Below are positions 9,423 through 13,201 of a stretch of 64,000 nucleotides of DNA, piece by piece; position 1 is the stretch's first letter; every line of letters starts with the position of its first letter. The stretch is from Leptolyngbya sp. Heron Island J (GTDB lineage Bacteria; Cyanobacteriota; Cyanobacteriia; Phormidesmidales; Phormidesmidaceae), in assembly GCF_000482245.1 (NCBI RefSeq), contig NZ_AWNH01000036.1:124001-188000 (forward strand), written 5' to 3'. Both the position numbers and the translations under genes were made by a program. The notes beneath the pieces were generated by a model. The model saw only the letters and a list, made by a program, of their open reading frames with translations. It was not told the origin of the DNA and did not search any database.

Positions 9423-10937
9423 TTATGGGGAAGGAGCCACCGGTTCTGCTGCTGGTGCGATTGGTGCGGCTGGATTGGCAGGGTCAGCTAATCGGTTTAC
9501 CTGCACCCCTGTTGCTGGTTCCGGCACCGTTTCAATCACATTGAGATCGTTGATAGTTTCATCGATTTGGATTACGTTCTCTGTCGGAATAGCCGTAGCT
9601 TCCACTGGTGGGGCAATGGCTTCCACAGGTGTAACCGGCTCGACCGGGGGGGCGGGAGCTGTTTCAGGGGGGGTAGGAGCAATCACGTTGGGCTCTGGTG
9701 CTGTGGGCACGTTGGCATCAGGAATAATAGGCGTCGGTGGTTTTTCAATCGGCTGATTCGGCCCCTCCCCAGGGGTAGGACCACCGGGAACCGGATTGGG
9801 TGCTGGGTTAGGAGCTGGATTGGGAGCCGGATTGGGAGCTGGATTGGGAGCCGGATTGGGAGCTGGGTTGGGAGCCGGATCGGGCGCTGGTGGTTTAGCG
9901 GGTGGCCCAGCAGTAGGCGGCGGTGGCTCGGCAGGGGGACGTGGTGGACGGGCATCTGGCTCCGCTGGTGGTACCGGCTGATTGCCCGGTTGATTACCTG
10001 GTTGATTACCCGGTTGATTACCTGGTTGATTACCTGGTTGATTGCCCGGCTGGTTAACGGTGGCACTAACCACACTTTCAAAGCCGTTTTGCTGCAAAAA
10101 AGCGGCGGCTGGAGAAGCAGCAAAATCAGGGATCGCTCTGTTGGCAGCAACCGATTCGTCCCTATTCGCTGAGAGAAATGCCGGATTCTCAATCACGGTA
10201 TCATCATTTTCAAAGCTCTGCTGCTGCTGGAGCGCATCCTGGATTTCTTGCCTGACCGCATCAATGGCTTCATCACCGGTCATAGCTTCACTATCATGCA
10301 GCTGCAGATCAGCGGCTAAATCACTGGTCTGGTAAAACAATTCCAGATCAAACGAAAATCTCTCTATGCTGCCATCCTCTCGCAGTACGGCCATTTCTCC
10401 AGCGTGCAGAGGTTGTTGCTGAGAGCCATCCTGGTTAAAGGCCATCATCGGACCTTCTGGATTATTAGTCAGAGCGCCAATGATAGTGACGTTTGTTTCA
10501 GGAATAAACCGCACAAACAATGCTGAGCCATGGATACCGGTCACCGCATTGGGGGTTTGGATCGTGGTGCCACCTTGTCCCGGAGGAATGAGCAATAGGA
10601 CTGTGCCGTTAGATAGACTGAAGTTGCGAGTGTTGGGGGTAAACTGAAAAACCGCACTTTCGCCAATCCGGGCCAATGACCCATCGTTAAAGCGCAGTTC
10701 GGCTCGTGCCCTGCGGGCGGTGCTGAGTGCATCCCCAATCCCTAAGACATCAGAAACTCTGGCCCTACGGGAGCGGCCATCGGTAAACAGCTCTACCCGA
10801 TTGCGTGTGAGTTCTACCCGAGCCCATGTCAGAATAGACTGGGCACTGGCAGACCTGGGCACTGACAACAACATCCCCACGGATGCGCATACCAGGGACA
10901 GCCAGCGACCAGTTGTCGCTACATTCAGTTTTTCCAT
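9423..10937 (-). CDS. Secreted FecR-domain protein with Pro/Asn/Gln repeats
   Basis: 504 aa. A signal peptide (LSLVCASVGMLLSVPRSASA, cut near residue 33) precedes a FecR domain at about 60-200: VLGIGDALSTARRARAELRF, DGSLARIGESAVFQF, then IQTPNAVTGIHGSALFVRF, the pattern of FecR proteins found as exported anchors in cyanobacteria rather than as iron-uptake anti-sigma regulators. The C-terminal half is low complexity: seven QPGN units, then eight PAPN units, then a Pro/Ala/Glu tail. This tail is probably an extended cell-wall spacer. The repeats are perfect or near-perfect 12-bp DNA units, so their number may vary. The gene is convergent with the glycoside hydrolase, 41 bp away. No sigma-factor partner is adjacent. 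Confidence 0.85.
   Translation of the reverse strand: MEKLNVATTGRWLSLVCASVGMLLSVPRSASAQSILTWARVELTRNRVELFTDGRSRRARVSDVLGIGDALSTARRARAELRFNDGSLARIGESAVFQFTPNTRNFSLSNGTVLLLIPPGQGGTTIQTPNAVTGIHGSALFVRFIPETNVTIIGALTNNPEGPMMAFNQDGSQQQPLHAGEMAVLREDGSIERFSFDLELFYQTSDLAADLQLHDSEAMTGDEAIDAVRQEIQDALQQQQSFENDDTVIENPAFLSANRDESVAANRAIPDFAASPAAAFLQQNGFESVVSATVNQPGNQPGNQPGNQPGNQPGNQPGNQPVPPAEPDARPPRPPAEPPPPTAGPPAKPPAPDPAPNPAPNPAPNPAPNPAPNPAPNPAPNPVPGGPTPGEGPNQPIEKPPTPIIPDANVPTAPEPNVIAPTPPETAPAPPVEPVTPVEAIAPPVEATAIPTENVIQIDETINDLNVIETVPEPATGVQVNRLADPANPAAPIAPAAEPVAPSP
9791..9886. repeat. 12-bp tandem repeat encoding PAPN units
   Basis: Eight consecutive 12-bp units of the type CTGGATTGGGAG, differing at a few wobble positions, in frame in the FecR-protein gene. 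They encode repeated Pro-Ala-Pro-Asn. Confidence 0.85.
9976..10059. repeat. 12-bp tandem repeat encoding QPGN units
   Basis: Seven 12-bp units of the type GGTTGATTACCC, in frame in the FecR-protein gene, encoding repeated Gln-Pro-Gly-Asn. Unit-to-unit variation is limited to wobble bases, mostly T/C and A/G. Confidence 0.85.
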
Positions 10938-11212: not shown

Positions 11213-11626
11213 TCAAAAATCATCCAACAACGGCCCTAAGCGAGTCAGTATGGGGTCATCCACGGGCTGGGGGGCGTCATTGGCCGTTGCCGCAGCTGGT
11301 TCAGAGGTGGTCATGGCTCCAGGGTCGGTCGGTGATATCTCGGATAAGGGACCATCGGCTTGATGAAATGCTGATGAAATGCTGGTGTTATCCTCAAGCG
11401 CGGCAATTCGCACTCCGAGCTGGGCAATCTGATGCTGCAATTCCATAAACAACATGACAGATGGGGTGGGCTCCCGACTCAGTAAGTACTGGTGTAGTGC
11501 TTGTTTGCATAGGTCGCTAAAGGACTGCTGATGGTTGGCCTGATGGGTTGCGATCGCATCCAATAAAACCCGATCCCCATCGCTATCATCGAAGGAGACA
11601 CTCTTACGGATGGATTTAGCAGCCAT
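11213..11626 (-). CDS. Small protein with ribbon-helix-helix-like N-terminus, partner of ParM-like gene
   Basis: 137 aa from the ATG that gives MAAKSIRKSVSFD (a TTG two codons upstream is also open). Residues 1-50 have the layout of a ribbon-helix-helix DNA-binding domain: a short strand (RKSVSFD), then a helix (RVLLDAIATHQANH), then a second helix (SFSDLCKQALHQYLLS). The middle is a short predicted coiled coil (MELQHQIAQLGVRIAALEDN) and the tail is acidic and Ala/Pro-rich, ending in LGPLLDDF. It lies 64 bp downstream of the ParM-like ATPase gene on the same strand. By analogy with ParMR systems it may be the DNA-binding adaptor, but no known ParR homology is claimed; the role is inferred from order and shape. 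Confidence 0.6.
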   Translation of the reverse strand: MAAKSIRKSVSFDDSDGDRVLLDAIATHQANHQQSFSDLCKQALHQYLLSREPTPSVMLFMELQHQIAQLGVRIAALEDNTSISSAFHQADGPLSEISPTDPGAMTTSEPAAATANDAPQPVDDPILTRLGPLLDDF

Positions 11627-11690
11627 GATCAACCAGGGGCAAGAAGTAACACTGCCCCTAATAACTCATAGCCTGGGGTAACCCGTCAAT

Positions 11691-12734
11691 CTAGCCAGCT
11701 GCTGCCGCCGTCAGGTTAGCCAGCTGCGCTTCACCATAAATATATTGCCCCAGCGCATTCGCCTGCCGTGATGGCTTCGCCAAATGCCCCTTGAGCTTTG
11801 CTTCCTTTAATAAAGGACGTAATTCATTCCAGAAAAATTCGCCCCCACCCCCGGTCACAATCACATCCGTAGACCGCTCCGGCAACCAGTTTAAAAACCG
11901 TTGCGACAGCTCACGGGCAAAACTCTTCCGCAGCGTCGGCAAAATCTCATCTAGATCCGTCGGTCTAGACGCCCCCTTCGGTCGATAAAACCGTTCCCCT
12001 TCTGCCTTATGAACCGCCTCAATTAGCGAAAGCGATTGACTATCCGCCCCATCAATCTGAGCTGCCACTCGTTCATAAAACTGAGCCATACCAAAGGATT
12101 CACTTTGAGACGCCCCACGAGCAAACCGAAAGCGATCAATGGCCAAAAAGTCGGTCGTTTGATGACCAATATCAACGATCGCCACAGACAAATTAGGAAA
12201 ATCAGGACTTGACGTGCGTTTATTCTGAGCCTCACTCCAAATCAGACTGCCATACCCCTCAGGCATGACCCAAACCTTGTCAACACTGATCTCCATAGAC
12301 TGCCCCCGATACACCATCACATGGGGAGAACTCAGCAAACTAACAATTTCCGACTTTTCGCTATCAAACTGCTCTTGGGAGTGATATGGCAAGCCTAAAA
12401 CAATGCCAATACTGCCCTTCAGGCCAAAATAGCCCACACAGGCCAAGGTTTTCACCAAAGCATCATCCACCTTAGATTGCCCAACCCCCAAGTCAGCCCC
12501 AAAATCCGCCGCCAGCTGGCCTACCGCGTAGCCCTTCCCCTGGTATTCCAACCACATATCCAGCAGTGGATCACTCGGTTGGGACTCAAAACCCCCACGT
12601 CGCACCTGTTCCACCGTCAGATGGGCGACATTAGCAGGAATTAACACTACATCGTTCTGATGACGTTTAATACAGGTTTTAGTGGCTGTACGACCCAGGT
12701 CAATACTCAGGAGCTTCATCTTAGGAGTAGGCAT
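11691..12734 (-). CDS. ParM/StbA-family actin-like ATPase
   Basis: 347 aa. It has the three actin-fold nucleotide motifs: phosphate-1 LLSIDLGRTATKTCIK near the N-terminus, phosphate-2 VAIVDIGHQTTDFLAI in the middle, and the adenosine motif VIVTGGGGEFFW near the C-terminus. Length and layout fit plasmid segregation actins (ParM/Alp type), which polymerise with ATP to push DNA apart. A second Met at codon 6 is an alternative start. The next gene on the strand is a small possible DNA-binding protein, giving a ParMR-like order. The 467 bp before the gene could hold a centromere-like site, although no iterons were obvious. Other roles for bacterial actin homologues are possible. Confidence 0.8.
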   Translation of the reverse strand: MPTPKMKLLSIDLGRTATKTCIKRHQNDVVLIPANVAHLTVEQVRRGGFESQPSDPLLDMWLEYQGKGYAVGQLAADFGADLGVGQSKVDDALVKTLACVGYFGLKGSIGIVLGLPYHSQEQFDSEKSEIVSLLSSPHVMVYRGQSMEISVDKVWVMPEGYGSLIWSEAQNKRTSSPDFPNLSVAIVDIGHQTTDFLAIDRFRFARGASQSESFGMAQFYERVAAQIDGADSQSLSLIEAVHKAEGERFYRPKGASRPTDLDEILPTLRKSFARELSQRFLNWLPERSTDVIVTGGGGEFFWNELRPLLKEAKLKGHLAKPSRQANALGQYIYGEAQLANLTAAAAG

Positions 12735-12872
12735 AACGCAAGTTGGTAGCTAAAAAACCTTTAACAACGAAGTAAATAACCAAAACCGATACTAACTGCG
12801 AAGGAGCACCAGGTAAAAGCCTTACAGAAAAGCGACAGCTTAAGTTCTGGTACATCATGCCGCAAGCTTGGC

Positions 12873-12909
12873 CAACGGTGAGTCGTCTCTATGACAAAAG
12901 TCACCGTTG
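12873..12909. repeat. Perfect 9-bp inverted repeat upstream of ParM-like gene
   Basis: CAACGGTGA at 12873-12881 and TCACCGTTG at 12901-12909, spacer 19 nt. It lies 140 bp upstream of the ParM-like start and just before a TATAAT sequence. Possible operator. Confidence 0.45.
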
Positions 12910-13133
12910 AAAATTTAAGTTATATAATACTTAACCCTAAGCCTGGTTCAAGTGTACTATATATCACAAAGCTTATTGAACCACCCATACACAGGCTGGG
13001 TTACCAACAAAACTCCGAATACCGCTTTCAGTAGTTGGAGTTTGAAGAAAACCTATGAGTCCGTCCACCTTTTAGAAAATTGTGTCTAGGCTGGTACCCA
13101 AGACAGCGCCAAAGTCACATCTAAAGTTAAACA

Positions 13134-13160
13134 TTGAATTTTCCTCCGCGCAAAATTCAA
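13134..13160. promoter_or_regulatory. Perfect 9-bp inverted repeat in the gnd leader
   Basis: TTGAATTTT at 13134-13142 and AAAATTCAA at 13152-13160 with a 9-nt spacer, 42 bp before the gnd start. It could be an operator or a leader hairpin controlling gnd. Confidence 0.45.
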
Positions 13161-13201
13161 GTTCTAGATGCGGGCATTAAGTAGACACTAGGAAACAGGT
13201 T

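What the first reader, a model, noticed from the sequence alone, without database searches (positions are those of the whole stretch)
11213..12734. ParM-like actin with a downstream RHH-like small protein: possible chromosomal segregation cassette
An actin-fold ATPase with all three nucleotide motifs is followed 64 bp later by a 137-aa protein whose first 50 residues look like ribbon-helix-helix and whose middle is a coiled coil. This is the order of ParM-ParR plasmid partition operons, yet it sits beside core carbon-metabolism genes. It may be an integrated plasmid remnant or a re-used filament system. The small protein is not a recognised ParR, so the pair may be a new adaptor type.
Basis: partly seen in the sequence, partly recalled or inferred. 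Interest (0 to 1): 0.62.

Follow-up and report, generated by a model that had tools for sequence, protein, structure and literature searches.

The report
Known cyanobacterial cell-shape actin FcmBC
The two genes are a copy of the recently described FcmBC (CorMR) pair, an old plasmid-partition actin and its adaptor that filamentous cyanobacteria now use to hold their cells in a rod shape, so the finding is real but already explained.

Summary
In detail: a 347-aa ParM-type actin (11691-12734, -) is followed after 64 nt by a 137-aa protein (ATG at 11626, stop at 11213) with a strand-helix-helix start and a coiled-coil middle. Both are recognised by curated NCBIfam equivalogs: FcmB (625 bits, cut-off 300) and FcmC (118 bits, cut-off 90). 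The actin also matches the solved CorM protein (9rmi, E 1e-154). FcmBC was published in 2025 as a partition system turned membrane-bound cell-shape cytoskeleton (PMC12645912). So it is neither a segregation cassette nor a new adaptor type. The pair is adjacent in all 46 FcmB-bearing genomes of 292 sampled. The phased repeats seen at 4 of 4 plasmid parMR controls are missing here. Three things go beyond the paper. FcmC carries an aromatic-basic N-terminal cap in one derived clade (Nostocales, Microcoleus and others), and the window's genus lacks it. FcmB of the window's genus and of other members of its GTDB family are separate lineages. In Nostocales, FcmB copies with changed active sites are fused to a membrane-anchored coiled coil, on plasmids and chromosomes (noticed in passing).

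The parts
11691..12734 (-). fcmB (corM): ParM-type actin-like ATPase, 347 aa
   Evidence: NCBIfam NF052678 625 bits vs cut-off 300; PDB 9rmi CorM E 1.4e-154; Pfam ALP_N and MreB-like_C
12678..12707 (-). FcmB residues 10-19, phosphate-1 loop (SIDLGRTATK)
   Evidence: mostly invariant in the 10-row alignment; motif name from general knowledge of the actin fold
12258..12260 (-). FcmB E159 in MPEGYGS, presumed catalytic glutamate
   Evidence: invariant in 44 of 44 non-fused rows; catalytic role by recalled analogy to ParM
12147..12185 (-). FcmB residues 184-196, phosphate-2 loop (VAIVDIGHQTTDF)
11829..11864 (-). FcmB residues 291-302, adenosine motif (VIVTGGGGEFFW)
11213..11626 (-). fcmC (corR): adaptor, 137 aa, ATG start
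   Evidence: NCBIfam NF052682 118 bits vs cut-off 90; no transmembrane segment, best 19-residue hydropathy 0.89
11474..11626 (-). FcmC residues 1-51: RHH-like strand-helix-helix; N-terminus MAAKSIRKS without the aromatic cap
11369..11464 (-). FcmC residues 55-86: long helix, probable coiled coil
   Evidence: the A2 profile's matches in the PDB are mostly coiled coils over this part
11216..11257 (-). FcmC residues 124-137: conserved C-terminal peptide DPILTRLGPLLDDF, presumed FcmB-binding tail
   Evidence: nearly invariant D124, P125, R129, L130, L134 and invariant F137 in 28 rows; 79 of 79 named FcmC end in DF or EF; binding role inferred
12735..13201 (.). Intergenic stretch to gnd where a parC-like centromere would be expected; no repeat array
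   Evidence: p 0.20

Best explanation
The pair is FcmBC (also called CorMR), a membrane-linked cytoskeleton descended from a ParMR plasmid-partition system. FcmB polymerises with ATP into filaments. FcmC is a dimer, through its RHH-like head and coiled coil, that grips FcmB by its conserved C-terminal peptide and holds the filament at the inner membrane. The membrane-bound filaments run round the cell and keep it rod-shaped. Shown elsewhere, in Nostoc punctiforme: the FcmB-FcmC interaction, FcmC-dependent membrane placement of FcmB, and loss of rod shape in either deletion. Shown here: orthology, linkage, conserved motifs, purifying selection, and absence of a parC-like array. Inferred: that this strain uses the pair in the same way, that FcmC dimerises through those parts, that the C-terminal peptide is the FcmB contact, and how this FcmC meets the membrane.
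For: Equivalog hits above curated cut-offs for both proteins; PDB 9rmi CorM E 1.4e-154 over residues 7-345. Functional data in PMC12645912 (abstract, Results and Discussion read). In the phylum sample FcmB passes its cut-off in 46 of 292 genomes and in all 46 an FcmC match lies just downstream, 43 of them over FcmC's cut-off. The order holds in 142 of 149 loci with an FcmB of E 1e-20 or better, rows partly overlapping between sources. No iterons upstream here or in three congeners, against 4 of 4 plasmid parMR controls with significant 9-12-nt periodicity. A separate MreB is present. FcmC's C-terminal DF/EF end is kept in 79 of 79. The pair lies between the same neighbours (gnd, FecR-like gene) at every congener locus found.
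Against: No experiment in this genus. The window's FcmC is the weaker match (118 bits) and lacks the aromatic-basic N-terminal cap of the clade in which membrane placement was shown, so its membrane contact may differ. The RHH fold was not confirmed. FcmB passes its cut-off in only 5 of 8 genomes of the genus and 17 of 63 of the family (some of these genomes are incomplete), so it may not be indispensable there. The periodicity statistic is also positive at 8 of 80 other FcmB loci; seven of those eight were inspected (L124 was not) and none showed an array like the best controls, though L093 has heptamer-type repeats.
Confidence: 0.9

Rival explanations
1. A working chromosomal ParMRC segregation cassette: FcmC binds a centromere and FcmB filaments push DNA apart.
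For: Gene order and ancestry as in ParMR; RHH-like N-terminus that keeps R/S/S on one face of the strand (my reading); chromosomal ParMs that polymerise are reported (PMC12270681, passages).
Against: No phased repeats in the 467 nt upstream or in three congeners, whereas 4 of 4 plasmid controls show them; no obvious nucleoid change in N. punctiforme deletions; family models describe a morphology role.
Confidence: 0.05
2. A recently integrated plasmid remnant on its way to decay.
For: Patchy presence: 17 of 63 genomes of the family over the cut-off. FcmB of the window genus and of the other f1 genera do not form one clade (AU p 1.5e-7), which suggests transfer between lineages.
Against: Low dN with saturated dS against three congeners, and the same neighbours (gnd, FecR-like gene) in them; both genes intact; the FcmB-level plasmid matches that were fetched (three of four) are fused, derived copies.
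Confidence: 0.03
3. FcmBC in this genus is a membrane-linked cytoskeleton whose adaptor meets the membrane by another route than the aromatic N-terminal cap, or acts through a further partner (a refinement of the best explanation, not exclusive of it).
For: The cap is absent in the window genus and in all other early branches sampled, with one change on the FcmB tree once L077 is recoded, two as scored.
Against: That the cap is a membrane anchor at all is inferred from its make-up; the basic MAAKSIRK end might serve.
Confidence: 0.35

Closest known systems
FcmB/FcmC of Nostoc punctiforme (Npun_R4472/R4471; NCBIfam NF052678/NF052682; PMC12645912)
   Same: Both proteins match the equivalog models above cut-off; same order, same strand, chromosomal
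   Different: This FcmB starts about 35 profile positions later (no N-terminal extension); FcmC is shorter than the 159-position model and lacks the aromatic-basic N-terminal cap of Nostocales FcmC; gap of 64 nt where most Nostocales have about 5
CorM (PDB 9rmi) and CorMR (Springstein et al. 2025 preprint, title seen in a reference list only)
   Same: The actin aligns over residues 7-345, E 1.4e-154
   Different: No solved adaptor chain matched this FcmC; the paper itself was not held
Plasmid ParMRC of cyanobacteria (e.g. Nostoc sp. UHCC 0926 pn2, Leptolyngbya boryana pLBX)
   Same: ParM-type actin followed closely by a 144-161 aa protein
   Different: About 23-27% identity; phased repeats upstream in the controls, none here
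Chromosomal cParMs of Desulfitobacterium and C. botulinum (PMC12270681, passages)
   Same: ParM-type actin with adaptor on a chromosome
   Different: Only marginal similarity (Dh-cParM1 chain E 0.13)

Membership tests
FcmBC / CorMR | Actin passes the FcmB equivalog cut-off | tested here: met
   625.2 bits vs 300
FcmBC / CorMR | Adaptor passes the FcmC equivalog cut-off | tested here: met
   118 bits vs 90
FcmBC / CorMR | fcmC directly downstream of fcmB, same strand, chromosomal | tested here: met
   64-nt gap; beside gnd; the congener PCC 7375 copy lies on an 8.16-Mb contig
FcmBC / CorMR | FcmB groups with the FcmB family and apart from other ParM-like proteins of the same genome and family | tested here: met
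   100/99 support against L002, L051, L052, on long branches
FcmBC / CorMR | Membrane-bound filaments, loss of rod shape on deletion | not testable with these tools
   shown for N. punctiforme only
ParMRC plasmid partition | ParM-type actin fold with nucleotide motifs | tested here: met
ParMRC plasmid partition | Centromere of phased direct repeats next to parM | tested here: not met
   none in 12735-13201, periodicity p 0.20; controls 4 of 4 at p 0.01 or below
ParMRC plasmid partition | Adaptor with a DNA-binding RHH fold | tested here: inconclusive
   helix-helix layout after a strand-like start but no fold match; head charge -1 against -1 to +2 in four controls
MreB | Match to MreB_Mbl in a whole-genome search | tested here: not met
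   this genome's MreB is at G000:C45 (480 bits); the window gene is not among the MreB_Mbl matches

The most novel reading that the evidence does not exclude
The window's genus keeps an early, cap-less form of the system. FcmC gained an aromatic-basic N-terminal cap (MFQWSKK, MALWAKN, MVLKWLRQ) once, at the base of the clade with Nostocales, Microcoleus and the Nodosilinea-type genera. The adaptors before that step, the window's among them, would tie the filament to the membrane in another way, or still to DNA, and so mark an intermediate stage between DNA segregation and a membrane cytoskeleton.
Probability: 0.3. Interest if true: 0.6.

Novelty: already known. Interest (0 to 1): 0.3.

Why it matters
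A raw-sequence reader picked out a real re-used partition actin, although the system had just been published. The comparison adds a candidate step, placed on a tree, by which the adaptor may have changed its cargo from DNA to membrane (the N-terminal cap), with a living group, the window's, that lacks it. It also turns up derelict copies of the same actin wired to a membrane-anchored module.

Tried and rejected
Iterons: none upstream of the window gene. A periodicity test gave 8 of 80 other FcmB loci at p 0.02 or below. Ten loci were then inspected, seven of them from these eight (L124 was not inspected): at most two-copy repeats, except heptamer-type repeats in L093. Plasmid copies as ancestors: rejected, since of 63 plasmid records with a match only four reach 54-58% identity, and the three fetched are fused and fall inside Nostocaceae FcmB in the tree. 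RHH fold by structure search: Foldseek gave one match of E 3.8 for the whole FcmC (an absent family is not excluded) and none for the first 54 residues; Pfam over 28 and 34 members gave no convincing RHH family. Charge of the FcmC head: -1 for the window, median -2 over 65 of 79 named rows (14 lacked the anchor pattern); plasmid controls +1, +2, +2, -1: too weak to use. Identity of the 3.0-Mb genome G085, which has a divergent FcmB and a weak FcmC: two megablast searches of its small contigs against plasmids found nothing. Promoter and terminator scan: no more than shuffles. Papers on CorM/CorR: searches found no full text of the Springstein work; it was not held by DOI or PubMed id. In the cap test L077 was scored 'yes' by rule but its W adjoins the strand; the change count is 2 as scored and 1 when recoded.

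Full report
What is there. On the minus strand, 11691-12734 encodes a 347-aa ParM-type actin and 11213-11626 a 137-aa protein, 64 nt apart. The genome is 8.06 Mb in 119 contigs. The nearest named FcmB genes are those of Leptolyngbya sp. PCC 7375, L. cf. ectocarpi LEGE 11479 and a Leptolyngbyaceae MAG (91-93% identity), so the window comes from that genus or one very near it.

What it is. NCBIfam names the actin FcmB (E 3e-188, 625 bits, cut-off 300) and the small protein FcmC (E 5e-34, 118 bits, cut-off 90). The actin matches PDB 9rmi, named CorM, with E 1.4e-154 over residues 7-345. Pfam sees ALP_N and MreB-like_C. FcmB and FcmC were described in mSphere 2025 (PMC12645912; abstract, Results, Discussion and found passages read). 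There, deletion of either gene in Nostoc punctiforme gives wide, round cells; FcmB forms membrane-bound filaments round the cell; FcmC is needed for that placement; the two proteins interact; and nucleoids show no obvious change. The authors derive the pair from a plasmid-partition system. [quoted passage not shown] That CorM/CorR are the names used there is recalled; it fits the PDB entry.

Distribution and linkage. In an even draw of 292 genomes of the phylum, FcmB passes its cut-off in 46. FcmC matches at E 0.001 or better in 51 and over its cut-off in 43. All 46 FcmB genomes have an FcmC match just downstream of an FcmB copy; three of these (G027, G085, G241) are below FcmC's cut-off. The five genomes with an FcmC match but no FcmB have weak matches only (E 1e-4 to 4e-4). 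Over all fetched loci with an FcmB of E 1e-20 or better, 142 of 149 have an FcmC-like gene within 400 nt downstream. The exceptions are L083 (about 0.9 kb away), L084 (none) and five fused copies (unnamed-genome and named loci may overlap). In the window's GTDB family FcmB passes the cut-off in 17 of 63 genomes, and in its genus in 5 of 8.

Not a segregation cassette. Four plasmid parMR loci from cyanobacteria, fetched as controls, all carry significant 9-12-nt periodicity in the 500 nt upstream of parM (p 0.01 or below), for example six copies at 10-nt steps in L162. The window's upstream 467 nt do not (p 0.20), and the window and three congeners show no direct-repeat family there. Eight of 80 other FcmB loci scored p 0.02 or below, more than the one or two expected. 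Six of them are from the window-like early branches, and the seven of the eight inspected showed nothing like the best control arrays; L093 has heptamer-type repeats. This argues against parC but does not exclude a degenerate centromere in that early group.

Anatomy of the adaptor. In 28 FcmC sequences the head has V10, F12, L21, F36, S37, K41 and L44 invariant, and the tail has D124, P125, R129, L130, L134 and F137 kept. All 79 named FcmC end in DF or EF, and none has a transmembrane segment by hydropathy. The AlphaFold model (pLDDT 68) gives helices 16-31, 36-51 and 55-86 and a short C-terminal helix. A monomer model cannot show the intertwined strand of an RHH dimer, and structure searches found no relative. 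So the RHH assignment rests on the pattern and on the ParR ancestry.

A difference from the studied proteins. In the FcmB tree (52 rows) one clade of 29 rows (support 96/90) holds Nostocales, Microcoleus-type, Symploca, Kastovskya and the Nodosilinea-type genera. All 24 of its rows that have an FcmC begin with a short aromatic-basic cap such as MFQWSKK, MALWAKN or MVLKWLRQ. None of the other 19 rows with FcmC does, the window (MAAKSIRKS) included, if L077, whose tryptophan adjoins the strand, is scored as lacking it. The state then changes once on the tree. That the cap helps membrane binding is inference. The direction (gain, not loss) depends on a root set by very long outgroup branches.

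Two lineages in one family. The window's genus and the other f1 genera in the tree do not form one clade (AU p 1.5e-7), so the pair has probably moved between cyanobacteria, or one copy was lost and another regained. That the other f1 rows are Nodosilinea-type is inferred from the likeness of their FcmC N-termini to those of named Nodosilinea loci. The neighbours gnd and the FecR-like gene were found only at loci of the window's genus; many genome-search loci hold only about 1.5 kb of flank, so more distant copies of these neighbours would be missed there.

Verdict. Ordinary and explained: a further copy of a published system. Interest lies in the cap and in the fused copies noticed in passing.

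Noticed in passing
L061 (G030:C2), L067/L171 (G245:C1), L150 (NZ_CP026684.1), L151 (NC_007410.1), L152 (NZ_CP043059.1): FcmB copies fused in frame behind a hydrophobic segment (19-residue hydropathy 2.2-2.5) and coiled coil, with no FcmC, on three plasmids and two apparently chromosomal contigs of Nostocales-type genomes. They fall inside Nostocaceae FcmB. All 5 have changed E159 or T193/D195, which are invariant in 44 of 44 other rows: probably dead actins, perhaps decoys or dominant blockers. The pNPM2 annotation starts after the fused N-terminus.
   Followed up: partly
L150:4467-5480, L171:9579-10592, L173:1986-5775, L154-L161: The hydrophobic-plus-coiled-coil module was found in 9 of 388 genomes of the class, with other C-terminal parts: dynamin-like GTPase on a Calothrix plasmid (Dynamin_N E 9e-17), leucine-rich-variant repeats, a weak fascin-like part. 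A 338-aa protein with an HNH-like motif (weak Pfam, E 0.07) lies upstream at four of the five fused-actin loci and at the Calothrix locus. It looks like a modular cassette, possibly a defence system.
   Followed up: partly
L093, L086, L095: FcmB with FcmC in MAGs labelled Xenococcaceae (a family of unicellular forms, recalled), Gloeomargaritaceae and Thiomargarita, against the published absence from unicellular strains; mis-binning is not excluded.
   Followed up: no
L068, L069 (G241, G085): Two 3.0-Mb genomes with a divergent FcmB (about 58% identity) and an FcmC below cut-off that has a second FSDWVKQRL stretch; the organism could not be named.
   Followed up: partly
L050 (G316:C108:63450-64057): FcmB matched in three neighbouring fragments: probably a decayed copy.
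   Followed up: no
L011 (G068:C1:5664618-5665083): FcmC split over two overlapping frames, a possible frameshift beside an intact FcmB.
   Followed up: no
G000:C108:19767-20576 (L002), G000:C49:50098-50529: Two further ParM-like genes in the window's genome, about 25% identical or weaker, probably plasmid-type.
   Followed up: no
window 9423-10937 (-): 504-aa protein with long NQPG and NPAP tandem repeats; its first 200 residues are kept at 83-90% beside fcmC at the congener loci. The name FecR-like is a reading of the sequence, not from a search.
   Followed up: no
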